A stretch of DNA of 64,000 nt from Aureobasidium sp. EXF-3400 (Eukaryota > Ascomycota > Dothideomycetes > Dothideales > Saccotheciaceae). Position numbers and translations under genes: made by a program. Positions 42,190 through 59,992 of the stretch are shown here, piece after piece. Location of the stretch: the NCBI GenBank assembly GCA_024195585.1, contig SWBL01000058.1:1-64000 (forward strand), written 5' to 3'. The notes beneath the pieces were generated by a model. It was not told where the DNA came from. It saw only the letters and a program-made list of their open reading frames with translations, and made no database searches. How positions within the stretch are numbered: position 1 is the first letter of the stretch; every line of letters begins with the position of its first letter.

Positions 42190-42276
42190 TGCACTACAAA
42201 TACTCTTTCGTGGCGTTACTACTCGCGTGCAATGCCACCAGAGCTGAAAACACAGATCTGAGACCAAAAGGACGCT
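42190..42276 (+). repeat. direct repeat, left copy (partner 43874-43961)
   Basis: Begins TGCACTACAAATACTCTTTC and ends GACCAAAAGGACGCT. It matches 43874-43961 at roughly four positions in five, in the same orientation, 1.68 kb apart. Both contain TTTCGTGGCGTT, ACTCGCGTG, GAGCTGAA and AGATCTGAGACCA. It is too short for an ordinary LTR; a duplicated segment or decayed element edge is possible. Confidence 0.75.
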
Positions 42277-42812
42277 ACAACGCTCCGCCGATTTGACGAG
42301 CTGGCACAATTGTCATTCAGTATACCGAGGAAGACGCTCCCATTGAGTTCTATGGTCCACACGCCAACTTCTCAAGCACTTCTACGCGCCGCGAGCCATT
42401 CGCATCTTCTTATACGTTCAATTACTGATGTCTTCGATGGCTTCTCTACGAATTGAATCCTTGCTACAGATCTAGCTGCTTAATCATTGAATGCGTTACC
42501 TTAGCAATGATGCGCCGAGTTGTCTCTTCCACACGCTCAATCGACCGATTTGATATCATCATCGTTTGCTTCTCCCACTGCGCGTTCTCTTATCCTACTC
42601 CTCATTCGCAGATGAATTCTGGTTCTTACTCATCTCTTATGAATCCATGGTCATGCGTGTTCAATTGAGTTAACCTCTGGGCTGGCATTGAGATTCTTAC
42701 GACCTAGGTCAAGTTGAGTGTTTCTCGCGCAATTCGGGTAGTGAGTATGTAATTGCTCTTTAAGCTTATTACACGAAGGTAATAGCTTGTACACAGAGAA
42801 TAGTACACTAAG

Positions 42813-43276
42813 ATGGCATCAATCGCCATCCGTCTCATCTTTGTGTAAGTTATGGCTCCTTGGCTTCAATTCTCTGCTCGTATGAACTCACGGCCATCTC
42901 TTCCATGCATGGTCTTGATTGCCTAAACGTTCGTAAGTTCTCTTACATCTTTATGGCCTTAACGTAAATCAATCTTAGTATCTCAATCTCTGGCCCAAGA
43001 TACTCTTCAACCGATGAGCTTACAAGCGGCACTGTCTCTCCTGCTCTGCTGATCTCCACCTCGGCCTTGTTCCTTAACATCACAACTGTTCCCGCAGAGT
43101 CGGTAGATACAGTCTATCTACTCCGCGACTACTGTATTCACGATGGTCTTAGACAGCTGCCTACCCCTAGTCCCAAGTCGTCCTCTAATGTGACACCCAT
43201 CGCTTCCTTCTCAGTATCTTTTAGCGCCAGTGTGAGCGGCATTTCTCTATTTGTTCGGATTTATAGGCAGGTCTAA
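42813..43276 (+). CDS. possible small two-exon gene (weak)
   Basis: Joining 42813-42844 to 42979-43276 through a GTAAGT...TTAG intron gives 109 residues, beginning MASIAIRLIFVISISGPRYSS and ending in a hydrophobic Ser-rich segment, SFSASVSGISLFVRIYRQV. The donor is a perfect consensus and the frame is maintained. There is no recognisable domain, and the surroundings are repeat-bearing. This may be a chance frame or a fragment of a lost gene. Confidence 0.25.
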
Positions 43277-43545
43277 GACCGTAATTCGCGAATTGGATAT
43301 CGTAAGACCTATTAAGTCATTCGTGCAACCTCAAGAGCTGCTATAACTAGACCAGACAGACGGCTCAAGCAAAAGACCATCGAAGAATAGAGAAAGGGAC
43401 ACTGTGGTAGTAGACTGACTTCTCTAAACCACTATTACTTCTAGACTCTACAAACTCCCTCGATGCTCTTAGTAAAGACGAGGTTACGCTTTCTCAACAC
43501 AGCGGTATCATTATCGTATAGCCTGATGATAAAGCTCCCCCTCTA

Positions 43546-43640
43546 ATATATGGACATGTTAAGCATAAAGGTATCTCTAAGTCCATCAGCTTATAAAGAG
43601 ATACCTTTCTTATCCTCATTCTCGGACAAAGTCCATATAT
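43546..43640. repeat. nested inverted repeat (foldback)
   Basis: Outer arms ATATATGGAC (43546-43555) and GTCCATATAT (43631-43640) enclose inner arms AAAGGTATCTCT (43567-43578) and AGAGATACCTTT (43597-43608). Both pairs are perfect. The inner loop is 18 nt, with 11 and 22 nt between inner and outer arms. The layout suggests a MITE-like or foldback relic, or a structured transcript. Confidence 0.8.
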
Positions 43641-43873
43641 ACCTATAGACGAGAGTCATCACAGACATACCCAAAGCATAAGCACTTCTCCCTCTCGCCT
43701 CCTAGCTCGACCGACAAACAATCGTAGAATCACCACTGTACATTATAAAGTTTATAAAGTATACCAAAGACCCACAAGACAAGATACAAGCACCGAAGAG
43801 ATACAAAGAAAAGCCCAACCGAGTGACATCAAACCTTCAAGTCAGCAGAAAGGCTGGGAGATTAGAGAGGGAT

Positions 43874-43961
43874 TGCACTACAAATTCTCTTTTCGTGGCG
43901 TTCCTCTACTCGCGTGATGTCGACAGGAGCTGAAGAGGAGATCTGAGACCACAAGGACGCT
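43874..43961 (+). repeat. direct repeat, right copy (partner 42190-42276)
   Basis: Second copy of the 87-bp repeat, lying about 220 bp downstream of the stop codon of the minus-strand bromodomain gene. It may therefore fall in that gene's 3' flank. See the left copy for shared motifs. Confidence 0.75.
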
Positions 43962-44183
43962 TTGATTCAGACTCAAATCGTGGAGATGGCAAGAAAATGA
44001 AAAATGATGGGGGATGAATGATGGGGGAAAATCAAACAAGTCACACAGTCAAGGCAAAAACAACCAATCCATCATCTTCAAACAAAGAAAATCCATAGCG
44101 AAACTAAGCATAGCAAAAAAGCAACATCTCCATCATAAAACAGTAGCACCAAGAAAATTGCAATACCAATGACTGAAAACTTT

Positions 44184-46802
44184 TTACACCTTCCTCCTTT
44201 TCTTATCTCCTCCACCATCATCTTCATCCTCTCTTTCCTGTACCGCAGACCGTACATTCGCAGCCGCACCTTCAACTTGCCTCCAATCTCTAACTTTGGC
44301 TTCAATATCATCAGCCATTTCCCTCGCATCCAACACCATTCCCTCCGTACTGCCAGGATTGAACATGACCGCATTAGCAAACATGCGCATAACTTCTTTT
44401 TCCAACTGACTTGAGTTCACAATCGCTTTTGGAGGTATCAAGTCAGCGGTTTTGTCTAGCAAGACCAGAGATGTAGAGGCAGAGGCGGAGGGGGTGGTGG
44501 CAGGAGAGTCGAGGGAAGCGGTGGCGGCATTAATAGCCCGAGAACCAAAAGTTATAGCTGCTTTGATGGATTTTAGGTCTTGAGGGCGTTTAATGATGGT
44601 GGTATACCCTTCTGCGTCTTTTTCGCGTACGGGTTTTTGGAAAGGTCCTGCGTGTTTGTGTTGAGTGATGTCGTTGATGATGACATTCGAGATGCGGGCA
44701 AAGTTGCGGTGGGCTTGGACTTTGTTCTTGAGTGGAGGTCCATAGGCTCGTCCTGCAGTCTCGGGTGTAGAGGTATCTTGCACGGGTGCTTCGGAGGAGG
44801 GGAGAGGGGTTGCTGAGCGGGCTCGCTTGCGTTTGTTGGTTGAAGTGCGGCTGCGTGTTGATTTGAGCTGGGTAGGAGGGTCTGAAGTTTCGGCTTGGAG
44901 GATCTCTTCTTGGAGCAGGTCGGCTGGTGTCATTGGCTCGTCTTTGACGGTGCGTGATGTGACTGATGGCTCTGCAGTTGTGGCCTGACCCTCGACCTGT
45001 GAGAGAACAGACTGGCTCCTCGTTCTAGCATGAATAGAGCTAGCGATCGCAGAAGAGGCGTTACTAGTGGCTCGATTGCGTCTGGTAGACTTGCGACTTG
45101 ACTTGGTAGGTTTTGGAGTTGGTTCTGTCTCTTCTTTTTCTTCTGGTTCGGCCTGTGCAGGTTCTTCTTCCACAGGCTTGGCTTGGGTAGAAATGTCTTT
45201 GACAGTGCGAGCAGGCGAGGCTTCCCGCGATGGAGGAGGTGGGCTCGCACGTTCAGGGGCGGGACTCTCCACGCCATCAATGAATGGTCGAGATAGCAAA
45301 GACGGTCTTTCACGCTTCCATGTCGCCGCACGGGAAGCTGAACGAGGAGTCATGGAACGAGAAAGAGTTGCACGAGGGGTCTTTCTCAAGCTGCTCAGGA
45401 TATCCAGCGGATTGACAGATCCGGGCCGACGAGTATCCGGAGGCGCTGGGTACGCGTATGGCGTGTGGGGTGAGTAAGGAGCAGGGACGCTCTGACGGAC
45501 TGGCGTAGGCGGTTGACGACCGTTTTGGGTTGCGACCTGCTGCTGAGCCAGATGGTGCTGGTGCATCCTGTTAGGATCCTGGGCAGCGACTTGGAAAGGT
45601 GGCAGCTGGTAACCTCCCTGATGAGGCGGACGAGGTGGATATGCTGTCTGGGGTTGTTGCTGAGGAGGGTAGCCTTGCTGTTGAGGGTATGATGAGTAGG
45701 GATTATGGTACGCTGGTGGAGTTTGCCCGTGAGGTGGCCTAGTGGCGGGTTGGAGAGGCACTGGAGGCAGACGCTGGTTAGGCGAAGGATACTGGGCGGG
45801 CCCAGGACGGGTTGAGACAGCGGGAGAGTGTGAACGAGGCGGCATGCTCATACCAGGGGGAAGAGGCAGCACTGGACGAGGCGAGGCTGGAGCCGGACTG
45901 TGACGAGGACTTTGCTGAGGTCGAGCAAACTGAGGAGGGAAGCCATTTTGCTGTATGACCGGGGACAGACGGTAACCTGGAGCCGACTGCAGATTGGGTA
46001 GCTGTGGAGAAGGCTGAGGTAAAGGAGACTCTGGAGCCATGTCGGACAGGGGTGGTAGAGAGGTGGTCGACAGTCGGTGAGGCACTGCAGGCGGAGCATA
46101 TTGCGTCTGCGAAGAGGATGCGGGCAGCGGAGGAGTGGGCGAGATGGTACGACGAGCAGCAACTGCTTCGTGGTTGATGACGGCGTCGATGTTGGCGCGA
46201 TTCAGGCGTGCTGGCTCCTTTGATTGCTGCTGCGCATTCTCTCCAGACGTCGTAGTAGTAGCTCCGTTGGTCTGAGTATCCGGATTTACTGCCAGTGGCT
46301 TGGATGCGGCATCGCCTGGCGAAGGTCGTGTGGGCGCGGCAGTGGCAGCTTGATCGGTTCGAAGACGGTCATCCCATTGTCCGCTCTCAATCTCCCCAAT
46401 CTCGCGTGTCAAAGTATGGTATCTTTCTTCCTCATTCCTGATCTCAGCGACGACGCCCTCCCTGTATCGAGTGTACAAACGATGGACGAGACGTGGGATC
46501 AAATGAGAGTGTTTCGCTGCTTCTTCAACGGTAGGTATGTTCGGGCTAAGCTGCCTCCTCTTCCTGTCCTCGTGCTGGTCCAGACTATTACGGGCCTCAT
46601 CCTTGAGCAGTTGCAGGCACAAGTGCTTGAGCGCATCTTCGTTCAGACGAGCGCTGTCGTACGTGGGGTCGTTGCGTATGAGCGGTATACTCTTTAGCTG
46701 CTCTGAAATCTGGCCGAAGCGGACAGCAGTCAGGCCATCGCTGCGCAAGGCGTGCAAGAGCAGAAGCGACTCAAGCGGTGTGTGCTGAGCCAGACTAGTC
46801 AT
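44184..46802 (-). CDS. bromodomain protein, Brd8/Bdc1-like (NuA4-associated)
   Basis: Single exon of 872 residues from ATG at 46802 (MTSLAQHTPLESLLLLHALRS); the frame runs further upstream but with GTG, not ATG. The N-terminal about 140 residues form a conserved helical module (TPLESLLLLHAL...DALKHLCLQLLKDEAR). The middle (about 165-670) is Pro/Gln/Ser-rich and disordered. The C-terminus contains a bromodomain-like fold from KVQAHRNFARISNVIINDITQ through GPFQKPV, GYTTIIKRPQDLKSIKAAI and VMRMFANAVMFNPGSTEG. An insertion of about 35 residues interrupts the bromodomain before the last helices. Fission yeast Bdc1 and human Brd8 share this arrangement and belong to the NuA4/TIP60 histone acetyltransferase; assignment to that complex is inferred. 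The tail ends in a KKRRKV nuclear-localisation-like motif. Confidence 0.8.
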   Translation of the reverse strand: MTSLAQHTPLESLLLLHALRSDGLTAVRFGQISEQLKSIPLIRNDPTYDSARLNEDALKHLCLQLLKDEARNSLDQHEDRKRRQLSPNIPTVEEAAKHSHLIPRLVHRLYTRYREGVVAEIRNEEERYHTLTREIGEIESGQWDDRLRTDQAATAAPTRPSPGDAASKPLAVNPDTQTNGATTTTSGENAQQQSKEPARLNRANIDAVINHEAVAARRTISPTPPLPASSSQTQYAPPAVPHRLSTTSLPPLSDMAPESPLPQPSPQLPNLQSAPGYRLSPVIQQNGFPPQFARPQQSPRHSPAPASPRPVLPLPPGMSMPPRSHSPAVSTRPGPAQYPSPNQRLPPVPLQPATRPPHGQTPPAYHNPYSSYPQQQGYPPQQQPQTAYPPRPPHQGGYQLPPFQVAAQDPNRMHQHHLAQQQVATQNGRQPPTPVRQSVPAPYSPHTPYAYPAPPDTRRPGSVNPLDILSSLRKTPRATLSRSMTPRSASRAATWKRERPSLLSRPFIDGVESPAPERASPPPPSREASPARTVKDISTQAKPVEEEPAQAEPEEKEETEPTPKPTKSSRKSTRRNRATSNASSAIASSIHARTRSQSVLSQVEGQATTAEPSVTSRTVKDEPMTPADLLQEEILQAETSDPPTQLKSTRSRTSTNKRKRARSATPLPSSEAPVQDTSTPETAGRAYGPPLKNKVQAHRNFARISNVIINDITQHKHAGPFQKPVREKDAEGYTTIIKRPQDLKSIKAAITFGSRAINAATASLDSPATTPSASASTSLVLLDKTADLIPPKAIVNSSQLEKEVMRMFANAVMFNPGSTEGMVLDAREMADDIEAKVRDWRQVEGAAANVRSAVQEREDEDDGGGDKKRRKV

Positions 46803-47690
46803 TACAGAGTTGAGTTGTCGCAAGGTGTTCACGGCGTCGTCGGCCAGAGTAGAGTGTCGAGAAGTCTTCGGGCCAGAAAATGACGGGGGTTCCAGTTCAT
46901 GCTTGTTTGGCGAATGATTTACGCGTCGTGGCTCATGCTGACTATGGTGCGAAATTTGTGATGGCCTCAGAGATGGAACTGATCGTCTTGTTGATGGCCT
47001 TGTGCTTGATCTTTCGCGACTTCCAAGTTGCTGCCATGGGATTTGCTCGTGGATCGCAACGCGGCGCCTCTTCCGCTGCCGCCGACCGTTGCTTGGCCAG
47101 AGCAGTTGGAACCTTTCGATCGTTCCACTCTTTGGCCTTACATCTGCCTTAACGTCTATCTTGGGATATCTTCACCTCTCAGCTGATTATCCATAAAAAA
47201 CCGCCTTAATTCTTGCCCGGATGCTATCTCCAGCCTTCTCTGCCTGACATGGCGTAGTAAGCATTCTGATCAGCTACGACAAGGCAGATGACAACTTTAA
47301 TCCTCCAGCTATGTCTTACACACATGTGCTCAACTCTCAACCTCGAGATGCAATAGATAAGTTTCCATGAGGCACTTTTATGATAGGATATACTTCGCAA
47401 GGTACGTATCGGTGTACATTCCTCGGTCTGCCTTGGTCTTGCTCGGCCTTGGCGGCATATCCTGCCTGAGTCGAGTACGAGTGGACCGACAAGTGGTCAT
47501 GTCGCAGCTTGCATATGAAAGAGACGATCCTCCTTTTGTCTTTGGAATAACTTCATTTCTACTTCTATTCATCTTCCACCCCGCCTTCTATCTGCTTTCA
47601 AATTATTGTCCCTTTTCATCGCTTTTCCATCACCCTCAGCTTTCGATCAAGACGCATTCTGTCAACTGCTCGTCATCCCTCTACAACGTC
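46803..47690. promoter_or_regulatory. intergenic region between divergent genes
   Basis: Divergent promoter space of 0.9 kb between the bromodomain gene and the small coiled-coil gene. The right part is CT-rich, as expected for a leader. A coding-like but unrecognised frame at 46880-47152 (+) is not supported by motifs. Confidence 0.4.
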
Positions 47691-48291
47691 ATGGAACACA
47701 CTCCCCAGCAGCGGGCCAGACCCGAGTCGTGAGCTCTGCTCCATTGACACGTCATTTGGCCTACCACTTACATGCTCTTAGCATTGCTGCTCGCAACTTT
47801 TCGGATGATCTGGACTCTCTCTTTGGCTTGAACTCGGGCACAACCCTTGGCAACCTATCATTCACCGTTGAGGAGAAGTCAGTAACTGCTCTCGAAGCTC
47901 GTTGTCCATGACGAGACATTGGCCGTAGCTTGAGCTCGTACTGACACGATACAGGAAGCGCACGGTATCCACCCGAGAAGAAGAACTCGCAGCCATCGAA
48001 GCCCGTCTTCGCGAAACAGAGCAACGTCTAGCACAAGCTGCCCACAGCCCCGACCACGAATCCACATCAGACCAAGCTGCACCCGGTGCTCAGCCATCTT
48101 ATGCTTCAAGAGACGCTGCTCCTAGACAAATGCCTGGTTACCAATCGTACCCCGAACAACAAAATCAAGCAAGACCACCCAACAACAGAGAGGAGTCTTT
48201 CCGACCTCATATCCCTGGCGCTATGCCCCAGACACCTACGCCACAGTACGGTCATGGACAGGACTATGTGACAGTGGACCGCACGAGATGA
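47691..48291 (+). CDS. small coiled-coil protein, uncharacterised
   Basis: Three exons, 47691-47728, 47782-47877 and 47955-48291, encode 156 residues. Introns are GTGAGC...TTAG and GTCAGT...ACAG, and both preserve frame. Residues 14-45 (IAARNFSDDLDSLFGLNSGT, then TLGNLSFTVEEK) precede a short coiled coil (STREEELAAIEARLRETEQRL). The remainder is Pro/Gln-rich, ending DYVTVDRTR. The STREEELAAIEARLRETE type of helix occurs in uncharacterised Pezizomycotina proteins, as far as I recall. No catalytic or binding function can be assigned. It is easy to miss because the longest single frame is just over 100 codons. Confidence 0.65.
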
Positions 48292-49020
48292 GACCTGAGT
48301 CTTGTCTGAGATGGTAGCATTAAGCATACGCAGTCCCAAGAGGTGATCTTGCGTAGGAGTTTTGGGATTTGTTCAAGAGGTATTTTCAGGTCAAGGCAAG
48401 CAAGCATTCCTACATTTATTCTATACACTTGTGGAAACACATGATTCGTTTCTATTGTCGCCGTCCTGGATTGAAGAAGGAGCCTTTCAGGTGTAGCTCG
48501 TTGGTTGTGATGTTAAGCAATGGTTTTACGTGGACTGAGCAAATGTCCATCCCTGGCATTTTGGTGACGTGCCCAGGATCAGTCTGGATCGAAACATTGA
48601 GCTCTACGAGTCTTGGTGCAGACTGGATTTCAGGCATGCACTAGTCAGGTGTTCGGGACGGGCGTGGTGGGTAGATGATGGAGTGATGGACGGGCCGTGC
48701 TTGTCCTTGCAGATGACGGCGGAGTAAACAAAATGTCGGGATGCCAGATTTCTGTATAAATGCTGGACACGACGAGAGGCATTACAAGTTCTTGACTTGA
48801 CTGCAAATGGCGATATCCAAAGTCGATTGACGAAGGATGCATTTCCTTGATAAAACGGGGCTTGGCAGCGGGCCGCTGACACTCGACGGGGTCGCGACTG
48901 GATGCGAGCCGCTGCCGCGTGTTGCACCTCGGCCTACGCGTATACCAGAGTCCAAGCACCGAGAGAGCATCAACTTGGCGTCGCAGTGACTGCTTCACTT
49001 GAGGACAAACTTGACTGGAC
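48292..49020. promoter_or_regulatory. 3' flank and RDS2 promoter region
   Basis: The 3' flank of the small coiled-coil gene gives way to the promoter and leader of the following Zn2Cys6 regulator. The long minus-strand frame in this region crosses the regulator's 5' exon and is a shadow. No extra feature is supported. Confidence 0.4.
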
Positions 49021-50791
49021 ATGACAGATGCTGATTCGAAGCATGATCGCAACGGAACCATGAACGACCCCAAATCCACGACCAAGCCGCAGCAACAGCA
49101 GCAGCAGCAAGCGGGCCAGAATGCAACCACAACCGACACACCAAAGTCGCAAGAGAGATCAAAGAGCACAGCCACCGTAGACAGTCCGTCAAGTCCACCC
49201 CGGAAGAAACGCAGAAAGGTCAACCATGCCTGTGTATACTGTCGCCGATCGCACATGACATGCGACCTCGAACGACCATGCGCCAGATGCGTCAAACGCG
49301 ACATTGCCCACCTCTGCCATGACGAACCCCGAGAGCCCACCAAGCCCAAGAAGCCAGACACCGATACACCTCCTGCCGATTCGATCCCCGTCGACGATGA
49401 ACGCAGAAGTAGCTTGAGGATGGACGCTCCCTCGATACAACAGCCAAAGCCAATGTCGCCTGCACAAATAAAGCACCAGAACCAACCCTCGAATGATCAA
49501 CGGCCCTTTGCTGTCAACGATTGGGACTTTGGCACCCCATCGAATCAACTGCACGACATGCGTAATCTACACCCAAACTACACCTTCAACACCTCCGAAG
49601 TAACCGACGAGTACAACTTCCTCGGCGACTTTTTGAACAACTCTCTCCTCGATGACGGCGCAACCTACAATCCCGACGACTCCAATGCCATCTTCAATGA
49701 CCCTCTGCTGGCAACCGGCTCTCTCTCCACCTACGCAAACAACATGAACCTCTTCTCAGGCATCCACCAAGCCACTCCCCCCACATCGGTAGCCGCTCCC
49801 CAACAACCCCAAGACACACAAGTCACCGCCGGCAACGATATCACCCGCCCCTCCTCAGTCATGCCCGTGGACACAAAAGCCCGAGACAAGTTCTACATGA
49901 CCGCCGCCGACCCAGCCGGCAACGACACACCCGAAGCCCGCATGCTGAAGCTGCTTCAAGCAAAATACGACGCAGGCATGTTACGGCCATTCAACTATGT
50001 CCGCGGCTACTCGCGTCTAAACACCTACATGGAGTCACACATGCGGCCTCCTCTGCGTCAAAAGATTTTGCGTCAATTAGAAAAGTTCCGCCCTAAGTTC
50101 AGGGAGGCCATGCATTTGTTGACGGATATCCAACTTATTCGCGTTGAGATGTGGTGGGAGAGTACACTAATGGAGTACGATCGCGTGTTTGCCAGTATGG
50201 CCATCCCAGCCTGCTGTTGGAGACGCACAGGCGAGATCTTCAGAGGAAACAAGGAGATGGCTGAGTTAATCCGCGTGCCCATGGAGGAATTGAGAGATGT
50301 ATGTTTTGGCTCTTCCCTCCCATCTTCTCCATTCCTTCCCCCATTTCTCTTCAGTGTATCCGCTTTTTGCTAACATGAAGCAATTAACACAGGGTAAACT
50401 CGCTCTCCACGAAATTATGGCCGAAGACTCTCTAGTCTCGTACTGGGAGAAATTCGGCGCCATCGCTTTCGATCAGTCCCAAAAAGCAATCTTGACATCC
50501 TGCACTTTGAAAAATCCTCACGATGATGATGAGGTAGATAAAGACAAAGACAGAAACGGTGCTGAAGAAGAAAAGAATGGGAAAGAGGGGAGGAAGAAGG
50601 GAGGAGTGGGTGTGTTGACGAAATGTTGTTTTTCGTTTACGATTAGGAGGGATATACATAATATGTGAGTTTTTCCCTGACTGATGATGAGGAGAGGAGA
50701 TGAGGGGCGGCAGAGGTGAAAAGAGAAACATTTGCTGACGAGAAGATGTAGTCCTTCGGTTATTGTGGGTAATTTTTTACCTATACAGTAA
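49021..50791 (+). CDS. RDS2: Zn(II)2Cys6 transcription factor, RDS2/AcuM-type gluconeogenesis regulator
   Basis: Three exons, 49021-50298, 50393-50664 and 50752-50791, encode 529 residues. A basic KKRRKVNHA precedes a binuclear zinc cluster with Cys at 71, 74, 81, 87, 90 and 99 (CVYCRRSHMTCDLERPCARC, then VKRDIAHLC). The central region is disordered; from about residue 295 the family block FYMTAADPAGNDTPEARMLKLL leads into a helical segment and a PAS-like domain (VFASMAIPACCWRRTGEI, GKLALHEIMAEDSLVSYWEKFGAIAF, TSCTLKNP). It ends CCFSFTIRRDIHNIPSVIVGNFLPIQ, as in yeast Rds2. The final 13 codons form a tiny third exon found by completing this motif. Rds2/AcuM regulators activate PEPCK and fructose-bisphosphatase genes on gluconeogenic carbon; role here inferred. 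A polyGln run lies near the start, and a Lys/Glu-rich insertion interrupts the PAS region. Confidence 0.9.
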
Positions 50792-53700
50792 TGATTCGAT
50801 CACGAGTGCCAGCACCCACGCCTTGTTGATAGCTGGCTGCTATTCTTAGCTATTCTTCATTCTCGTACATGACTCTTCATTGCAAATAAGACGTTTTATA
50901 CCCCTCCATGCCAACCGTCATTTCAGTCCTTTTCCATCCTTTGTTCTGCTTTACCACCACATCGCATTGCAGAATAAACCAACCCTCTCTCCTTATGCCT
51001 GGAACAATAGGGACAGATCGAGACTGTTTATGTATCTGAGACCAGGCACCAGGTCCATGAACCAGAACATCCTCGTGTTCATCTCAACTCCACGTACAAG
51101 ATTGTCTATGCATATCTGTATCATGGAGCTTTGTCTTGTCTCCCTAAGTTTCAATGAGGGGCATACTTTATAGAGATAAGAACTGATCAAGCAGGATGAA
51201 CGAGGGCGGATTTGTGAGATGTATGTTTCACCTAGAATGGTGTTTAGTTCGAACATGAGTGTGATATGGGAGTCAGGTTTTATGCTTAAGTTCGCGCTAG
51301 GACGTTTAACTATCTATTACGACTATTTATGTATTAGATTAGCTACATATGTGCGAGTCTAACAGGTGCGTTGCTTAAAGTTATATGTTCTATGCTAAAG
51401 GAACTTATAGCCTTACTAGCTAAGAACACTATAATAAGGACTCGTAACTTATAAGGACTTTTATAATAATGATCTTATAATATAGACAGGTAAATGAAAA
51501 TCCACTGCCTTATTTATACTAGCTACCTTAATATCCTTACGTCTCGGAACATAAATCTAAACTATCCTTGCTGTATATAACCCTAAATATTACTACACTA
51601 AGTACTAAATCCTATCTATCGTATCTAAGGAATATATAATTAGGATACAGCACATCTATAACTTCCATTAGGCAGAGATTGAGGTCGAGCCACTCACTAT
51701 GCTAGATTCCTACGAGATTAAGTGTATCTAGGATTGAATATAAGGGGCAAATATAAGGTAAACAGGTCTTTATACCCTGTTGCTTAAATTGTGATCTCCT
51801 GCCGCAGTAAGGTATATAATTTTAGTACAGATGATAGATCAAGATTTAGAAGGAGGGTTAAGGTTCTTGGAGAGGTAGTGTAGAGTCATGGACCTAATCA
51901 CCTTCTATCTTCTTAGAGACTGTGTTCCGATAAGGATATTATAACAATGTAAGCAGTTATAGGGCAGAGGCTTGAATCTAATAGGAGAGGCTACGGTAGC
52001 TGTATAGTAAAATTTCTACCCACCGATGTCGGGAAATGAGGTTCCAAGATAGGCATTACCTAAATATAGAAGTAGTAGGTTATAAACATATAGGGCATCT
52101 CCCCATACCTTTAAATCTGTGTACACCTAATAAAACCAGATCTAGCGAGCTTATTTGAGTGTAAACACCCAAAAAGATAACGCAACCTACAACACCGGCG
52201 ATACACAGGCTGTCGACATTAGATGGGGCCTCCAGGTGTATAGGATACAAACTCAATTAGATAGGTTCATCGATCAAGTATCTTGCCCTAGCTATCTGGG
52301 AGACCTAAAAACTCAACATCAATCATGAAACCCACAAGCTGAAGATCAATAAACCTATGATCTGTTCAAGCAGCCAGAGAATAGTAATGTTTCTGTATGA
52401 GTCTACTCAGCCAGAAACTGGTCGCATTGCCCGGGATCCTCTATATCTGTGAAACATAAAGTCAGGATCGCGTACGGAGGGAAGGTAGGAAAGTCAAGGG
52501 GTCCTCAAATCTCTCTACTATCCTCTGCAATCTCAATTCGCAATATTTGAATGTATATACATCTGGTGGAGACATCAAGGTCTCGGGACTTCAGCTCAGG
52601 ATCTAGAGATCTATGATGGTGAGTGCAGAGTCGTGGACGTGAGAACTTTCTCTCCCCTACCCGGATTGTGGTAGTTCAACGAGTTTTTCTGGGATCTAGA
52701 CGTGACCCACAAGGTCGGGCGTCCAGAGACTGGCTTCAAGGTTGCTGAAGGGATCAGCTCGGTTTGTGATAGAGAGTTGACTGATGGATAGTGAACGCTT
52801 TATGAGGATTTGGGAAGTACGGATGCTGCACAAGTAGTAGCGATGTGAGATATTGTACTGATCTTCCGGATCTGTGCTTATATCATGCCAAGTTAGACTC
52901 AGTGGGGATGTTCAAAGGACTATCTCTAACGAGACATCGTTGCAGCCACAGACTCATTCTTCCAGAGTATTTGGCTCTTCTTGCTCCGAAGAGAGATGGC
53001 GATATATCTGGAGCTAAGAGAACAGATATACCATCAGCGATATGGTCACACCTGCATCTCTACCGCAGAGTGATCTACCTGGTCAAACAACACGAACTCC
53101 TCGATGATAATTCGATATTCATCAGCATGGTCCTGTACTTCTGTGGAGATTGATAGATGACACACGATGAACTCGACGCCGAGACATATACGGCCGTCAG
53201 CATATAGAAATTTGGATATTCGATGACTACTACCTCTTTAGTTAGACCACTCGAAGTACTATGGTCGCCGGGTCCAGGTTTTAGACTTGGTACCACTCAG
53301 TATCCATCACCATATGATAATCTGGTACAAAGAGCGGAACTCGAAAGTGCTGCCTTTGCATGCATGGTCACCATGTCAAGCGCTAGAGAAATTTGGGACC
53401 CGAGAACGCTCCAGGAGAAGGCACTGTGGTCCCTGATTCTGCAACTTTGAAACGTGGTCCCAGAAGGTTATCCATTCCGTAAATCCTCGAGAAATGCATA
53501 TTCTGGTGCCACGCACTTTGGAGAGTCAGAGGAATAAGCAAGATTCATGGGCCTAGTTGTTTCGTGAGCTGTGCTTGATCTGGGTTGGATGTTCGGAGCG
53601 GAGTAGGGTCCTGTAGTCTACTCAACTGCCTTGCGCCCTGCTTGAGCTGATGTGCACGGTGTATTTTTTCCTTTTGAGATAGTTTGCATCAGGGATAGCC

Positions 53701-53822
53701 TCAATGACATAACTGGTTTTCTTGCTGGAGAAGATATCTGCTGATTATTGTGCCATCAATCAGATGCACACGAAAAGAGTGAATAGCAGAAATCCTCCAA
53801 CCCCCTATCCCACAGCACCCAC
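50792..53822. other. 3-kb AT-rich gene-free block, RIP-like
   Basis: The first about 450 bp are the RDS2 3' flank. From about 51300 to 52200 the sequence is markedly AT-rich with abundant TA steps (for example ACTTATAAGGAC and TATAATATAG). No open frame exceeds about 100 codons before 52.8 kb. This composition is what repeat-induced point mutation leaves in Pezizomycotina. Copies of the box A / box B repeat are embedded here (listed separately). No gene is supported. Confidence 0.55.
51760..53450 (+). repeat. second set of box A / box B repeat copies (three, degenerate)
   Basis: Box B-like sequences occur near 51886 (GAGTCATGGACCTAATCACC), 52623 (GAGTCGTGGACGTGAGAAC) and 53421 (GTGGTCCCTGATTCTGCAAC), spaced about 0.74 and 0.80 kb apart. 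Box A-like sequences are near 51764 and 52445 (ATCTGTGAAACATAAAGTCA). Orientation equals that of the 21.8-26.4 kb array, and a GA-rich segment again precedes box B. Copies are weaker than in the first array. Confidence 0.5.
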
Positions 53823-55002
53823 TCAAATCAAACAAGCACTAGCAGCATCAACCAAAGCCACCTTACTCTCACCAAGACGATGGAAACCTCCCTGCTCTGC
53901 AACCTTCTCCTGCAAAACCACCATCTTCTTCTGATCACCAGTGGGATCAGCACTCTCATCCTCAAAAGCCCACTCCAAATACTTATTAGTATAGTTAGGA
54001 GTATACTCCTCAGGCAAAACACCAAGTCTCTTTCCATACTTAGTAACCTTGTCCCAATCTCTGGCTACATTCTTCATATCCTTTGAAAAGTATGCAAAAC
54101 TTCTTTCGAAGATTTTGCGATTGAGGGAGGTTCCCATGGCTGGTTTAAACTGCACGTATTCCTCGTAGGCAGAAGCAGGAGAAGTAAGGATATAGTCTGT
54201 AGCTCTCTTGCAAGCGCGCAGGAAAGCTTTGACTTTGGGTCCGTTGTTGGCGATGAAGGTTTCATTGCCGATGTAGAGGATGGAGCAGAAACAGCAGCAA
54301 CCTAATTCGGCGAGTTCGTCGATACGTAGCATTTGGACATCGCTGCGGGGTTTACCCTGAGAAGCAAGCCATTCAGCAAGTTCAACCATTTGCACGTTCT
54401 CAAGACCAATGCCAGCGTCGATGGTGCCGTCGATGATGGCTTTGGAGACATTCATACCGCAGCGAATGGCAGTGTAATCGGTGGGCTTCATGTTGTAGTA
54501 TTTGGTCAATTCGTCGATTTGGATCTTGCCGAATTCACCAACGTAGCCGATGCGTTTGCCGATCAGAGAGCGGAAGTCGGTGGTAATGCCTGAGGACTTG
54601 AGATACACGATTCCGGTGAAGGGCTCGTCGAGAAGGGAGCCAACGGAGAGAATGGGGAAGCCGCGGGCTTTACCGGCGAGGGTGTGGATCATGGCTTTGA
54701 AGCCTAGGTCTACTTTGCCGCTTCCGATGATTTCGGTGACATCCTGGAGAGAAGGTCAATATTTTGATTGGGCTGTAAGGGGAAGGCAGGAGATAACGCA
54801 CGCTGGGGTCGTTGGGCTCGAGGAGAGCAACCTTGAGGCCTTCGTCGGCGAAGTAACCCTTGGCTTGAGCAAGGTAGACAGGGGCATGGTAGGGGGTGGC
54901 ATGCCTGTAACAAGTCAGTACCGCCGTCACTTTTCCACAACGATCAAGGACGAAAGGTCCAACACACCAGTTGGACAAAAAGGTGATCTTTTCAGTAGTC
55001 AT
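53823..55002 (-). CDS. THI5: THI5/NMT1 HMP-P synthase (thiamine pyrimidine synthesis)
   Basis: Three exons, 55002-54968, 54904-54802 and 54743-53823, encode 352 residues, close to the 340 of yeast Thi5. The joined N-terminus reads [20 protein letters not shown], then [22 protein letters not shown] and [21 protein letters not shown]. The enzyme makes 4-amino-5-hydroxymethyl-2-methylpyrimidine phosphate, with PLP on a lysine and an active-site histidine consumed as substrate. Lys62 and His66 fall at exactly the yeast positions, as does the CCCFC iron-binding motif at 195-199, so the protein should be functional. C-terminal [28 protein letters not shown] is typical. A TPP riboswitch lies in the leader, so repression by thiamine diphosphate is expected. 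Confidence 0.94.
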
Positions 55003-55082
55003 CTTGAATGTTGTTCAGGGATAGAAGCAAGCTTCGTCACGTCAGTACACTCCACCCTCGATGGAGAGAGGGAAAACAGAAG

Positions 55083-55190
55083 CAGTCCTTTCGCTGGAAT
55101 TACCCAGATCAAGTTCTATGCTTGGAAGGAAGCAGTCAAATGATTGCTTCCCTCCCAACATTACGGTATTTCTCAGATCGACCTCAATGA
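55083..55190 (-). promoter_or_regulatory. TPP riboswitch in the THI5 5' leader
   Basis: On the minus strand the aptamer half GATCTGAGAAATACCG (about 55165-55180) is the CUGAGA...UACC pyrimidine-sensing region. The second half ACTTGATCTGGGTAATTCC and AGCGAAAGGA (about 55085-55113) is the diphosphate-sensing region, close to the fungal consensus. Between them GGGAGGGAAGCA and TGCTTCCTTCC pair to form the long P3 stem typical of fungal TPP aptamers. A donor-like CTCAG|GTAACG lies upstream at about 55275, so the aptamer probably sits within a 5' UTR intron, as in Neurospora NMT1, where TPP switches splicing. Confidence 0.9.
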
Positions 55191-55275
55191 TCTGGCATTG
55201 TATGAAAGCAACGACAGACCCTGAAGTCGAACACCCGTCTGCAATATACATGTTTTGTGTGATACGAGACGTTAC

Positions 55276-57190
55276 CTGAGCTTTTCCCCGCTTGATACGT
55301 AGATAGATCCATATCGAATGACTTGCTGTCTTTGCAAGACTCGTACCAGAATTGATGCGTCGTGTTGGTGAGCTGTGGTTCAGAGTGAGGAAAGAGAAAG
55401 TAGGGAAAAGAGAGGAATAAGTGAGGCATTTATAGGTTGTGCTCGGGATACCTACCTCTAGAGGTGTCGTGCAGTTACGAGCGGGACAGAAAGAGGGGGA
55501 TCATCGTATAGGACCGACTTCAATCATACCGGAGTTATCATCAAGGTGTTCAGGCCACCTGTTCTCGCAGAGGTTCATGTGTCTCTCAGAGAACAGGTAA
55601 ATGCGAATCCCATACTTATGAATGTCAACAAGTTACGCTCTGTAGCTGAATGACTGATTCTGAGATGGAAAGCATCAACTCGATTTTGTGTAGAGCGGGA
55701 TTAGTACGACTATGCAGCAGGCAGACCATGACGCCCAACAGTCTTGGTTGACCGACATCGCACCATGCATTGAGTCACAACAAGCTGGTTGCATGTCACC
55801 GACTTATTTCGAAAACCCAACGCCCAATCTTTGTAGCCGGGACAGGATGCATAATAGAACTTTCGTTTGTCCGGTCGGGCATGCTGTATGAAGTGGTCGC
55901 TCTCGTATTGGAGGCCGTGGAAATGACCTCGGTTGAAGATGCCGATTCTGTTAGACGTGATTCGACTGGATGCAGTATACTCGCGCCTGATGGATGTGAT
56001 ACTACTGATAGACACTCTGGCTGCGAACGCCAGTTCGGCGACCTCGGACAGGTGAACGGTTGATGTGTTGCGACATCCCATGCTGAACGGCACGGATGCT
56101 CGGAGATGCTCGGTGTATGTCGTTTGAAGGAAAAGTTTGTCACTTGCTTCACTTATTTCCATCGTGAATCAGAACTGGAATTAGCAGGTGAGACATAGTG
56201 ATACTGAACGTGCACCTTGTAGGTTTGTATGACTTCGTGTATAAGATGCTTCCCATGTCATCGTACTCTAATATCCTTGTGGCAGGAGGAGTAACAAACT
56301 TCAGCACCTACAGCAGATTAAGGTTCAAGCTCGAAGCTTTGACATCGTTAGCAGTTTTTGATGCGGGGAGCACCCTGGTTCATCATGAAATTGTGCATTC
56401 TAGCACAAAAGGACCAGGTGAACATGCTTTTCAGGGTTGTCACAAGGTGTCAACGAGACAATTGTTCTGAAACGCGGAAGACCGAGTAATGACAAGTGGT
56501 AGGTTGGTGCTAAGCGACGGAGACGACGTTGTCAAGGCAGTGAATGTGGTGCTTGAGCGTGCGTCTCCCAAACACTCTGTTCCGAACATCCGGTAGGGAC
56601 AGACAGGAACAGCCATCTGTTGAACCTGTATTTGTTGGAAAAACAGACAGCAGAGCCAATCAAGTTTTGAATATGATTTGTTTATTGAACTTGTATTCGG
56701 CAAACTAGACAAATAGGAAGAGGATAGTCAGGGACACAGCGATCCGTAGACGCTTTTTTGTCGCACAGACATTGGGTGGGGGCATGACGCAGGCTTAACT
56801 GTTGACCAGCCAGTTCAGGGCGAGGGCGATAGACAGATTATCTTACGAAGCAGACGACGTGGCACCTCGCACGAGGGAGGACCAGGCATCAAAGTGGCTC
56901 CCAACTTCCTGAACAACCTCAAGGCCCGAGGCAAAGTGGTCAAGTCGAAGCCCTTTCTCAGTTACCTGCTCCCTGACAGCCGACGCAAAGCACGAATCTC
57001 GTTCCGCAACCTCCGTTTCGACACACTCCCACGACTCGGCCATTCTGCAAAGTCCCGTATATACCGCTTCATTGCCAGCCGACAGCTCAAGAAGCAGCAG
57101 CGAAAGGCCAAGGGCATCCTCGCCTACCTGCGTCAGCGCAGCCCGGCATTCCTAACATCACGCGACGAGAAACATGCCCCTGGGAGGACC
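55276..57190. other. upstream region of THI5 and of APP1
   Basis: Contains the THI5 promoter on the left and the APP1 upstream region on the right. 55.7-56.8 kb has no supported gene. From 56750 to 57190 (+) the APP1 frame is open and coding-like but lacks ATG, so it may be a spliced 5' part of APP1 (see that entry). Confidence 0.4.
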
Positions 57191-59992
57191 ATGTCATATC
57201 GAGCATACCCTGACGATGCCCCTCGCGAGTCGGGCGGCCGTCGTAAGAAGTTGGCTGGTTACCTGAAGGCCGCGAACGACCTGAGACAATCTTACGCTTC
57301 GTCATGGTCTCAATCAAGAGACTTTGCTCAGGACAGCGAAGAGCAGCCTGGCATCTTCCCTGGTGCTGATGTTGTCCGCAGCGGCGATGAAGAGATGATC
57401 ATCTTTCCCAGCTACGCCACAAAGCACATACGAGCAAAGCCCCGCGCCCAACCAGGCACAATACAGCAAGCCGGCGGTACTGGAAGAGACGTCAGAGACA
57501 CAGCAGGCGCTGGAGATGCCGAGTTCTGGAAGTCGCAATGGGAAGAGTATGAACAAGACAAGGCCATCGTCGACGTTGACGTGCGTGGCTGGCTCTACAC
57601 TCCGCACAAGGGTCAACTTAGTCGCAAACATCGTCTCATGGTCGGTCTTGCGAGACAGCTCGTCGGCATCCAGGCTCCCTCGGGCAGATCGAGTTCTGCC
57701 AACAGTCGTGCCAGCAGTCGCTCATCCAGTCCTGTTGGCCACAGAGATTCAACCACCAGACAAGAGGAGGAAGCAATCCAACAACAAGCAGCCGAAATCC
57801 TAAAAAAGGGCGAGAAGGAGGCAGAGATTGCCGGAAGAGGCGGCTTCAGTGAGCGGCCCAGTCGTTATGCAGAAAGCACTCGCTCCAGGGAACCCTCTCC
57901 TGCTCCTAGCGCGAGAGAAGGCCCTACCTTCGATGACTTCCTCGCCCCCTCAAGGTCCAATACCGCAGGTTCTGACTCCATAAATCCCGTGCAGAAGCGC
58001 TCGTCGTGGCCGACCCCGGCCACCATGTCGTCCGAGCAACTCCTTACAGCAAACAACCATCTCATGGCTCGTCTGAGACCTTTCATGGCCAACCCTCTGG
58101 CCAATGCATCCGTGAGCGCCTTCTTCTACAACGACAAAATTTCTCGCCAGAGGACTGTACAGACGAACGCTGCTGGTCACTTCCATCTACGCGCCGCTCT
58201 CGACTTTGTGCCGACTCACGTGCGCATTCTCGCATCCGAGGATCTGTCCGCTACCGAAGAAGTCAAAGTCACTCCAGTCAGAGGTGTCAGCTTGATCAGT
58301 GACATTGACGACACTATCAAGCACAGTGCCATCACCAGTGGTGCGAGAGAGATTTTCCGTAATGCTTTCATTCGTGATCTTGGTGATTTGACCATCGAAG
58401 GTGTCAGACAATGGTACTGCAAACTTTCCGACATGGGTGTACAGATGCACTATGTCTCCAACTCACCCTGGCAACTTTATCCTGTCATTACTGGTTTCTT
58501 TAAAGCCGCTGGTTTGCCACTTGGATCTTTCCATCTGAAGCAGTACAGTGGTATGCTGCAGGGTATCTTTGAGCCCGTTGCTGAACGCAAGAAAGCCACT
58601 CTCGACCGTCTGTTCCGTGACTTTCCAGAACGCAAGTTCGTGCTGGTTGGTGACAGTGGCGAGGCAGACTTGGAGGTCTACACCGATGTGGTTCTGGAAT
58701 ATCCTGGCCGTGTGGTTGCCATCTTCATCCGCGATGTGACATCAAAACCCGACAAAGGCTTCTTCGACCCATCCACGGGACCTTTCGGTGGCGATAAATC
58801 AACCAAAGGCCATAACCGTAACATGTCTACCGATAGTCTGGTTGGAGCCAAGAGACTGAATCGACCCTCGGATATTCAAGATGATGACGACGAGCTTCGC
58901 AGAGCGATAGCTGAATCTCTCAAGGACACCGAACCAGACAGGAGATCACTATTTGGTGGAGATGTCGAGCCGACAAAACGACCCAACTTACCACCCAGAC
59001 GCCCTACAGACCCTCCTGCACCACAAGCAGCTGCGATGGAGGATAACCTCATCGACTTTAGTGACGACGAGAGCACTTCTCCATTGTCCAACGAACCTCA
59101 AAAGTCTCAAAAGAGAGCCTACAGCACATCACTCACCAGAAGACCTGCTATCCGCTCTGCTCAAACGGAGATTCACGCTAAGCGCGCGACCCCTCCGCCT
59201 CCCCCAAAACCTCTTGCATTACGTTCGCCATCAGGAGAAGGCAAAAACTTTGCCAGCTTGGCTCCGGAGAAGTCTGCAGCACCATCACCACCCAAGCCGC
59301 GCAAACCCAGCACCACGGTCAATACCACGATCGTGCCTTCGCCACTTTCTCAAGTCATCGAGCCCTCACCCGCAACCACCGCACCACCACCTTTGCCAAA
59401 ACGCCACTACCTCACATCTGCAAAGCAAAAGCTGTCCCCCACCACCGCATACTTTTCGTCCACCAAACGCACTCCTACCTGGGGATCAGAGAGCAGCGGC
59501 ACCTCCACACCCGGCGAATCACGAACTTTGACTTCATCAGCAGCAACACGCTCAATGGACAATTTACGCGGGCCTCCTGCTGCTACTACTACTCAAACAT
59601 CAACTGCACGACCTAAACCCCCTCCTCCACGCAGGAACATCTCGCACTACCCCGCCGCCGCTGCATCATACGCTACAAACCGTCTCAGCGGCGCCTGGAA
59701 CGACTCTTCCTTCCACGAACCCCTGGATCCAGAAGGCGGACCCATCCTCAGCAAGAAAGAAGAACTTTGGAAGAGGAGATTAGCCAAAGCCAAAAGCATC
59801 ATGGAAAGAGAAGGTGTGGTGCTCAGGACCTGGAGGGTTGGTTCTGATGTCATGGATGTTTGCGTCGAAGCCGTTAGACAGGAGTTGGCCGAGATGGAGA
59901 AAAAGGATCGACGAGATTTGGAGTTGCAGCAGTTGAAGGATAAAGAGAAGGAAGCCAAGAGTGGGAAGACCGGACAGGGAAAGTTGATCTGA
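57191..59992 (+). CDS. APP1: App1-type phosphatidate phosphatase (actin patch protein 1)
   Basis: Frame of 933 residues from ATG 57191 (MSYRAYPDDAPRESGG), the start that best resembles fungal App1. The N-terminal block (RRKKLAGYLKAANDLRQSY...FPGADVVRSGDEEMIIFPSYA) is followed by VDVRGWLYTPHKG. The catalytic DUF2183 domain carries the HAD-like motif DIDDT (371-375) and continues VSNSPWQLYPVITGFF, GSFHLKQYSG, KFVLVGDSGEADLEVY. Yeast App1 is a Mg2+-dependent phosphatidate phosphatase that binds cortical actin patch proteins. The C-terminal third is Pro-rich, with several PxxP stretches suited to SH3 binding, and ends in a charged coiled coil. The frame is open for a further about 147 codons upstream with basic, coding-like sequence but no ATG, so an unseen upstream exon could extend the protein. 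Confidence 0.88.
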   Translation: MSYRAYPDDAPRESGGRRKKLAGYLKAANDLRQSYASSWSQSRDFAQDSEEQPGIFPGADVVRSGDEEMIIFPSYATKHIRAKPRAQPGTIQQAGGTGRDVRDTAGAGDAEFWKSQWEEYEQDKAIVDVDVRGWLYTPHKGQLSRKHRLMVGLARQLVGIQAPSGRSSSANSRASSRSSSPVGHRDSTTRQEEEAIQQQAAEILKKGEKEAEIAGRGGFSERPSRYAESTRSREPSPAPSAREGPTFDDFLAPSRSNTAGSDSINPVQKRSSWPTPATMSSEQLLTANNHLMARLRPFMANPLANASVSAFFYNDKISRQRTVQTNAAGHFHLRAALDFVPTHVRILASEDLSATEEVKVTPVRGVSLISDIDDTIKHSAITSGAREIFRNAFIRDLGDLTIEGVRQWYCKLSDMGVQMHYVSNSPWQLYPVITGFFKAAGLPLGSFHLKQYSGMLQGIFEPVAERKKATLDRLFRDFPERKFVLVGDSGEADLEVYTDVVLEYPGRVVAIFIRDVTSKPDKGFFDPSTGPFGGDKSTKGHNRNMSTDSLVGAKRLNRPSDIQDDDDELRRAIAESLKDTEPDRRSLFGGDVEPTKRPNLPPRRPTDPPAPQAAAMEDNLIDFSDDESTSPLSNEPQKSQKRAYSTSLTRRPAIRSAQTEIHAKRATPPPPPKPLALRSPSGEGKNFASLAPEKSAAPSPPKPRKPSTTVNTTIVPSPLSQVIEPSPATTAPPPLPKRHYLTSAKQKLSPTTAYFSSTKRTPTWGSESSGTSTPGESRTLTSSAATRSMDNLRGPPAATTTQTSTARPKPPPPRRNISHYPAAAASYATNRLSGAWNDSSFHEPLDPEGGPILSKKEELWKRRLAKAKSIMEREGVVLRTWRVGSDVMDVCVEAVRQELAEMEKKDRRDLELQQLKDKEKEAKSGKTGQGKLI

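What the first reader, a model, noticed from the sequence alone, without database searches (positions are those of the whole stretch)
55083..55280. TPP riboswitch in the THI5/NMT1 leader, probably inside a 5' UTR intron
The minus strand upstream of THI5 contains both conserved halves of the thiamine pyrophosphate aptamer with a fungal-type extended P3 stem, and a donor-like CTCAG|GTAACG just upstream. Riboswitch-controlled splicing of NMT1 is established in Neurospora, so this is a mechanistic prediction for this gene, including possible alternative donors near the aptamer and upstream ORFs.
Basis: partly seen in the sequence, partly recalled or inferred. Interest (0 to 1): 0.75.

Follow-up and report, generated by a model that had tools for sequence, protein, structure and literature searches.

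The report
Vitamin B1 riboswitch with extra hairpin
The leader of a fungal vitamin B1 synthesis gene carries an RNA switch of a well-known kind that probably chooses between two splice sites when the vitamin is plentiful, and it has an unusual extra hairpin at its hinge that standard searches do not expect.

Summary
On the minus strand before NMT1/THI5 lies a complete TPP aptamer (about 55256-55073). RF00059 finds it only below its cut-off (33.8 bits against 54.3) and threads it wrongly: a 44-base hairpin (55161-55118) sits in J2/4, between P2' and P4. The genome (53 Mb, by its proteins an Aureobasidium, apparently a hybrid diploid) has a second NMT1 copy, L008, about 80% identical in DNA. It keeps the core outside P3 letter for letter, and the extra stem with changed but still pairing letters. 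The other six TPP aptamers found in the genome lack the hairpin. The stretch before S2 can pair with P4-P5, and in ligand-free folding that pairing dominates (mean probability 0.94 and 0.99). Neurospora-type splicing control is the best reading; no experiment shows it. J2/4 hairpins also occur in bacterial TPP aptamers, mainly Bacteroidota (55 of 56 strict inserts fold as one hairpin); 0 of 18 such loci tested reach the RF00059 cut-off. A known kind, with a structural variant I found undescribed in fungi in my literature searches.

The parts
55455..55464 (-). palindrome CCTCTAGAGG in the promoter, identical in the second copy (possible protein site, untested)
55427..55436 (-). TATA-like CCTATAAATG
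55340..55350 (-). distal donor S1, TCTG|GTACGAG, GT begins at 55346 (predicted)
   Evidence: conserved as TCTG|GTATGAG in L008
55276..55312 (-). uORF, first part (ATG at 55312) in the S2-spliced mRNA; with the second part 17 aa, 13 aa in L008
55015..55031 (-). uORF, second part with stop TGA 55017-55015
   Evidence: homologous CCCTGA in L008
55290..55322 (-). anti-aptamer stretch that can pair with P4-P5 (core ATCAAG 55296-55291)
55270..55280 (-). proximal donor S2, CTCAG|GTAACG, GT begins at 55275 (predicted)
   Evidence: CAG|GTAACG also in L008 and L001/L007
55251..55256 (-). P1b 5' arm AAAACA, pairs with 55078-55073 (proposed)
   Evidence: identical in both copies, so no covariation
55239..55242 (-). 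P1 5' arm GCAG, pairs with CUGC 55085-55082
   Evidence: formed in the free fold of L008, not in that of the window
55233..55238 (-). P2 5' arm ACGG(G)U
   Evidence: (L008 fold); register set by hand on the RF00059 consensus shown
55176..55232 (-). extended P3 with loop
55171..55175 (-). J3/2 UGAGA, pyrimidine-binding motif
55163..55169 (-). P2' arm AUACCGU
55118..55161 (-). extra J2/4 hairpin, 16 bp plus 2 inner pairs
   Evidence: z -5.8 alone; stem kept with changed letters in L008
55086..55117 (-). rest of J2/4 (AGAA), P4, P5, L5 UAAU, GCG, P4'
55073..55085 (-). P1' (CUGC) and P1b' (UGUUUU)
55041..55047 (-). branch-site-like TACTGAC
   Evidence: conserved in L008
55032..55346 (-). long intron S1 to acceptor, 315 nt (321 in L008); removes uORF and aptamer
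   Evidence: predicted
55032..55275 (-). short intron S2 to acceptor, 244 nt (260 in L008); leaves the uORF in the mRNA
   Evidence: predicted
53823..55002 (-). NMT1/THI5 coding region, exons 55002-54968, 54904-54802, 54743-53823 (352 aa)

Best explanation
A TPP riboswitch in a 5' UTR intron of NMT1 sets the choice between two donors. Without TPP, the stretch before S2 pairs with P4-P5, the proximal donor is disfavoured, S1 is used, and the whole intron with uORF and aptamer is removed, so NMT1 is made. With TPP, the aptamer (P1-P5) forms, the anti-aptamer pairing is lost, S2 is used, and the mRNA keeps a 17-codon uORF that lowers NMT1 translation. The J2/4 hairpin turns the P1/P2/P4 three-way junction into a four-way junction. 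It forms in both folds and is most likely a peripheral extension at the hinge that leaves ligand binding intact and may tune folding. Shown by computation: aptamer anatomy, counterpart elements in the second copy, complementarity, fold balance. Inferred: TPP binding, splice-site use, repression, role of the hairpin.
For: RF00059 match; free folds of both copies; NMT1 gene (25, 28, 29). CATAGAACTTGATCTGGGTAATTCCAGCGAAAGGACTGCTTCTGTTTT and other core stretches are identical in two copies whose locus is about 80% identical. Hairpin: 16 of 16 compared pairs form in both copies, 11 unchanged, 4 changed on one side, 1 on both, one bulged base of L008 set aside by hand. The 66 nt at S2 pair with P4-P5 better than most dinucleotide shuffles in all 8 loci of the genome (15, 1, 0, 1, 1, 0, 6, 9 of 500 as good for L006 = window, L008, L001, L007, L004, L005, L002, L003; S2 of each locus was picked by eye, and the two members of a pair are not independent) and than most other 66-nt windows of the same locus (4/246, 4/244, 0/256, 3/253, 0/249, 0/249, 4/252, 7/253 as good). 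Ligand-free ensemble: anti-aptamer core 0.935 and 0.986; the aptamer fold lies 7.9 and 14.9 kcal/mol higher. [quoted passage not shown] In bacterial TPP aptamers with an insert in J2/4, 55 of 56 inserts fold as one hairpin of 6 or more pairs; 30 aligned ones covary; 4 of 5 downstream proteins scanned are thiamine-type or PnuC transport proteins over NCBI's cut-off. So the position tolerates a helix.
Against: No RNA-seq, RT-PCR or binding data. RF00059 score is below the curated cut-off. Of the six NMT1, THI4 and NUC loci the window copy has the weakest anti-aptamer signal by energy and shuffles (-19.4 kcal/mol, 15/500). Masking of S2 in the ligand-free ensemble is clear at 7 of 9 positions (-3..+6) in the window copy but only partial in L008. 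The base of P3 has one broken pair (A-C) in L008. P1 is not in the window's free fold. The fold energies are for a finished chain, while splicing is co-transcriptional. A model built from bacterial J2/4-hairpin aptamers did not thread the fungal copies as proposed.
Confidence: 0.85

Rival explanations
1. The aptamer still binds TPP, but control is not by S1/S2 choice: TPP causes intron retention or early mRNA end/decay instead.
For: Unspliced mRNA also begins with uORFs (42 codons in the window; 20 and 35 codons in L008), so retention would repress as well; S2 lacks G at +5.
Against: Anti-aptamer complementarity next to S2 in all 8 loci and an S2-spliced uORF ending at a homologous stop in both NMT1 copies fit donor choice.
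Confidence: 0.12
2. The J2/4 insert is a small nested intron (GTAATG...CATAG, 49 nt; 63 nt in L008) and the working aptamer exists only after its removal, or GTAATG serves as a third donor.
For: GT and AG at its ends are kept in both copies, its length lies near that of the NMT1 coding introns (63 and 58 nt), and the loop holds YTGAC, branch-like (sequence).
Against: The ends are explained by the stem and its flanks; the stem keeps pairing through changes; the donor lacks G at +5; removal would leave about 2 nt of J2/4 and cut P2'; bacteria carry comparable hairpins in J2/4.
Confidence: 0.05
3. Degenerate riboswitch: the insertion broke the aptamer and the leader is no longer TPP-controlled.
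For: The aptamer fold is 8-15 kcal/mol above the alternative without ligand, which ligand binding must pay for; of the four riboswitch pairs only NMT1 has the insert.
Against: Core letters outside P3 are identical in two copies diverged by about 20%; the L008 hairpin differs yet pairs.
Confidence: 0.06
4. Chance resemblance.
For: Score under the Rfam cut-off.
Against: Right gene, right place, second copy, contact motifs in order.
Confidence: 0.01

Closest known systems
Type I fungal TPP riboswitch of NMT1 (Neurospora crassa; class of Mukherjee et al. 2018, PMC5882874)
   Same: 5' UTR intron, two donors around a short uORF, P4-P5 complementary to the donor region, NMT1 gene
   Different: extra hairpin in J2/4; the anti-aptamer stretch overlaps the uORF start; not tested in RNA
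Hortaea werneckii TPP riboswitches (nine, PMC11683625, passages seen)
   Same: duplicated black-yeast genome with paired THI4, NMT1 and NUC riboswitches
   Different: there also a UREA pair and a single AA; here 2 THI4, 2 NMT1, 2 NUC and 2 AA found, no UREA found; no J2/4 hairpin is mentioned in the passages I saw
Bacterial TPP aptamers with a J2/4 hairpin
   Same: hairpin directly between P2' and P4, a few unpaired bases on each side
   Different: bacterial leaders, no introns; probably independent origin (inference)
P3a-bearing TPP aptamers (PMC2258182, passages seen)
   Same: an optional extra stem-loop in the aptamer
   Different: P3a lies between UGAGA and P2', not between P2' and P4

Membership tests
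TPP riboswitch aptamer (RF00059) | covariance-model score at or above the gathering score 54.3 | tested here: not met
   33.8 bits. 0 of 8 loci of this genome reach it, nor do 0 of 18 bacterial J2/4-hairpin loci tested, while the same family is over the cut-off in 10 of 14 control genomes; so I do not take the miss as disproof
TPP riboswitch aptamer (RF00059) | UGAGA in J3/2, UAAU in L5, GCG in J4/5, and the two G of the G-G pair 18 apart (motifs as given in PMC5882874) | tested here: met
   window 55175-55171 and 55113-55086 (distance counted by hand); UGAGA is followed by A where the paper writes GAGAU
TPP riboswitch aptamer (RF00059) | helices P1-P5 in order | tested here: met
   P1 is short (4 bp) and absent from the window's free fold, P4 has 3 pairs counted
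TPP riboswitch aptamer (RF00059) | binds TPP | not testable with these tools
   needs in-line probing
Type I splicing-control NMT1 riboswitch | aptamer in a 5' UTR intron with donors up- and downstream of a short uORF start and an AG before the coding exon | tested here: met
   predicted from sequence and second copy; no transcript data
Type I splicing-control NMT1 riboswitch | P4-P5 complementary to the donor region | tested here: met
   window copy weakest of the six NMT1, THI4 and NUC loci by energy and shuffles
Type I splicing-control NMT1 riboswitch | thiamine changes donor use | not testable with these tools
   no RNA data
P3a stem | stem between UGAGA and P2' | tested here: not met
   P2' AUACCGU follows UGAGA after one base and pairs with the P2 5' arm; the hairpin comes after it

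The most novel reading that the evidence does not exclude
The J2/4 insert is a removable mini-intron (49 and 63 nt, GT...AG, branch-like YTGAC in its loop) nested in the riboswitch intron, so that the aptamer is completed only by splicing and the gene senses both TPP and splicing capacity.
Probability: 0.05. Interest if true: 0.8.

Novelty: new variant of a known kind. Interest (0 to 1): 0.42.

Why it matters
It gives a complete, testable splice-control model for vitamin B1 synthesis in a black yeast and suggests that the hinge of the TPP aptamer accepts a whole helix in a eukaryote, as it does in some bacteria. The standard model's cut-off missed all such bacterial aptamers that I tested, so maps of TPP control are probably incomplete.

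Tried and rejected
Reading the extra hairpin as P3 (the Rfam threading): rejected, it leaves out UGAGA and P2'. Reading it as P3a: rejected by position. A urea-transporter TPP riboswitch in this genome: a pattern search gave 18 places, 6 of them known loci; its own reversed-pattern control gave 11. The 12 others: 7 were looked at (its printed distances are wrong by a script slip), all 12; 0 of 12 have a P4-like CYTGA in the 12 bases before, 4 of 12 have a UGAGA-like word somewhere within 300 bases. So none looks like a TPP aptamer, but the pattern also misses the AA pair, and a diverged one could be missed. A model from the genome's own THI4/NUC aptamers was given up because MAFFT set P2' off by one. 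Model R1 from 30 bacterial J2/4-hairpin aptamers scores both NMT1 copies highest of the 8 loci (28.0 and 25.5 bits; others 16.4-22.7, L002 not found) but threads them through the hairpin in a wrong way, so it is no support for the proposed threading. Fungal-like pattern in viral contigs: 0 hits. First guess of Hortaea werneckii as the organism: dropped after the protein search. No fungal DNA collection was available, so the age of the insert beyond the two copies is unknown.

Full report
What is there. The window is G000:C58:1-64000 of a 53.4-Mb assembly in 717 contigs. The gene at 55002-53823 (-) is NMT1/THI5: with two introns removed it encodes 352 aa, Pfam NMT1 5.6e-72, best solved relative yeast THI5. 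The best protein relatives are Aureobasidium (90% to Aureobasidium sp. EXF-8845, 89% to A. melanogenum). RF00059 finds 8 places in the genome, all below the cut-off. By gene and sequence they form four pairs: NMT1 (window = L006, L008), THI4 (L004, L005), a cytosine/purine-type permease called NUC here (L001, L007), an amino-acid-type permease called AA (L002, L003) (one search scanned one partial protein each from L001, L002 and L004, the L002 one only just over the Pfam cut-off). The L008 NMT1 protein is identical to an A. melanogenum database protein; the window copy is 89% identical to it, and DNA blocks around NMT1 on the two contigs are 80-82% identical (two further blocks 76%). This fits a hybrid diploid, a state reported for A. 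melanogenum (PMC9535773, passages seen). The organism and the hybrid state are inferences.

Aptamer anatomy. The best Rfam alignment starts at 55170 and misses the true 5' half. Free folding of the window strand gives a P2 in a shifted register, a long P3, the extra hairpin, P4 shifted by one and P5, but not P1; the free fold of L008 gives P1 GCAG/CUGC, P2 ACGG/CCGU, the hairpin, P4 and P5. Set by hand on the Rfam consensus shown, P2 is ACGG(G)U with A-UA-CCGU, and J2/4 is A + hairpin + AGAA against the consensus UuGAA. So the hairpin is an insertion of 44 bases in an otherwise 5-base J2/4 (58 bases in L008; letters). The six other aptamers found in the genome have 4-5 bases there (by hand). 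The hairpin region alone has z -5.8 (window, 49 nt) and -7.9 (L008, 63 nt), 0 of 200 shuffles as good each. Of 16 pairs compared, 11 are unchanged, 4 changed on one side, 1 on both, none lost, with one L008 bulge set aside. Two sequences cannot give strong covariation. P3 differs more: 8 basal pairs with 1 lost in L008, and 8 middle pairs with 2 two-sided and 2 one-sided changes in a register set by hand.

Splicing anatomy. S1 TCTG|GTACGAG, S2 CAG|GTAACG, TACTGAC and an AG 9 bases after it have aligned or equivalent counterparts in L008. Splicing at S1 leaves NMT1 as the first ATG in both copies; splicing at S2 leaves a uORF of 17 aa (window) or 13 aa (L008) ending at a homologous TGA. In L008 the S1 donor itself holds an ATG, so the S2 form has a further uORF of 31 aa that overlaps the main ATG. 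The transcription start was assumed to lie downstream of the TATA-like site. All splice sites are predictions.

Switch. The 66 nt around S2 pair with P4-P5 better than most shuffled copies in all 8 loci and better than most other windows of the same loci (counts in the For line). S2 was picked by eye in each locus, and members of a pair are related. The window copy is the weakest of the six NMT1, THI4 and NUC loci by energy and shuffles. In the ligand-free ensemble of the leader (285 and 293 nt) the anti-aptamer core has mean probability 0.935 and 0.986; P1, P2, P4 and P5 are near 0; P3 base (0.92 and 0.77) and the J2/4 hairpin (0.90 and 0.92) stay formed. Forcing the aptamer costs 7.9 and 14.9 kcal/mol; leaving the hairpin out changes this to 8.8 and 16.6. 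So the hairpin belongs to both folds and hardly moves the balance in this model. S2 (-3..+6) is mostly paired in the window copy but only partly in L008.

The hairpin elsewhere. In 84 of 119 no second P2'-like motif lay within 14 nt before P4 (58 of the 80 listed; a loose rule). A strict rule (CTGAGANNNNACCC, GGGGTG upstream, standard P4-P5) that says nothing about pairing in the insert kept 56 of 119 (36 dropped for the 3' end, 26 for not having CTGAGANNNNACCC, 1 for a short P3); in 55 of these 56 the insert folds as one hairpin of 6 or more pairs. Three of the 56 (L030, L072, L128) hold a second ACCC near P4 and are probably P3a-type. Of the 38 strict ones among the 80 listed, I count by record title 31 Bacteroidota, 4 spirochaetes, 2 Pantoea and 1 unnamed (titles; phyla by my knowledge). 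30 of these 38, chosen by the shape of the predicted hairpin, were aligned: 6 of 6 hairpin pairs show changes on both sides, 92.8% of cells pair (the choice favours pairing, and the sequences are related). Of five downstream proteins scanned out of 38, two are thiamine ABC substrate-binding (sfuA over its cut-off), two PnuC over its cut-off, one TonB-linked below all cut-offs. 0 of 18 such loci, picked by me from the 58, reach the RF00059 gathering score; 8 of 8 rescanned give 34.5-49.8 bits, and in the two TPP alignments printed the hairpin is taken into the P3a/P2' region. For comparison the family is over its cut-off in 10 of 14 control genomes. So an extra J2/4 helix is compatible with TPP riboswitches, and the fungal case is probably convergent (inference).

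Literature. PMC5882874 (the Results section read in full) describes types I-IV of fungal control, says P3 varies, and reports amino-acid-permease riboswitches as absent in Ascomycota. PMC11683625 (passages) reports nine in Hortaea and notes weak RF00059 performance, blamed on P3. PMC8786325 (passages) treats one extra base in J2-4 as notable and says P3a was not yet found in eukaryotes; PMC4260697 (passages) reports P3a in diatoms. PMC2258182: passages. Searches for Aureobasidium with riboswitch (5 papers), TPP riboswitch with J2-4, additional helix or insertion (25 of 306 listed) and with four-way junction (12 of 15 listed) showed me no report of a J2/4 hairpin in a fungal TPP aptamer; of these I saw listings, with passages from only a few papers. 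Supplements were not open to me and subscription papers are mostly not held. The Neurospora experiments of Cheah et al. 2007 are recalled and known here only through citing papers.

Verdict.

Noticed in passing
L027-L145 (bacterial loci): Many bacterial TPP aptamers carry a hairpin in J2/4 and those tested fall below the RF00059 cut-off (0 of 18 pass; 8 of 8 rescanned at 34.5-49.8 bits), though 4 of 5 downstream proteins scanned are thiamine-type or PnuC transport proteins.
   Followed up: partly
L002, L003 (about 1500-1630): A pair of TPP aptamers in an internal intron of an amino-acid-type permease, with L5 UUCAUA instead of UAAU. PMC5882874 reported this class as absent in Ascomycota; PMC11683625 found one in Hortaea.
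   Followed up: partly
L001 and L007, donor S2 to acceptor: After S2 splicing the uORF of L007 meets TAA at once, whereas in L001 it reads in frame into the permease, so the two copies may be controlled differently (read by eye).
   Followed up: no
window 41142-53821 against G000:C78: Blocks at window 39373-41141 and 53822-55545 are 2.0 kb apart on C78 but 12.7 kb apart in the window: an insertion, loss or rearrangement between the two subgenomes.
   Followed up: no
window 55455-55464: Palindrome CCTCTAGAGG followed by a TATA-like site in a well conserved promoter block of both NMT1 copies.
   Followed up: no
window 56894-59989: Divergent neighbour gene encodes an APP1-type phosphatidate phosphatase (PF09949), also next to NMT1 on C78.
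   Followed up: partly
L008, S1 donor: GTATGAG holds an ATG, giving a further, overlapping 31-aa uORF in the S2-spliced form that the window copy lacks.
   Followed up: partly
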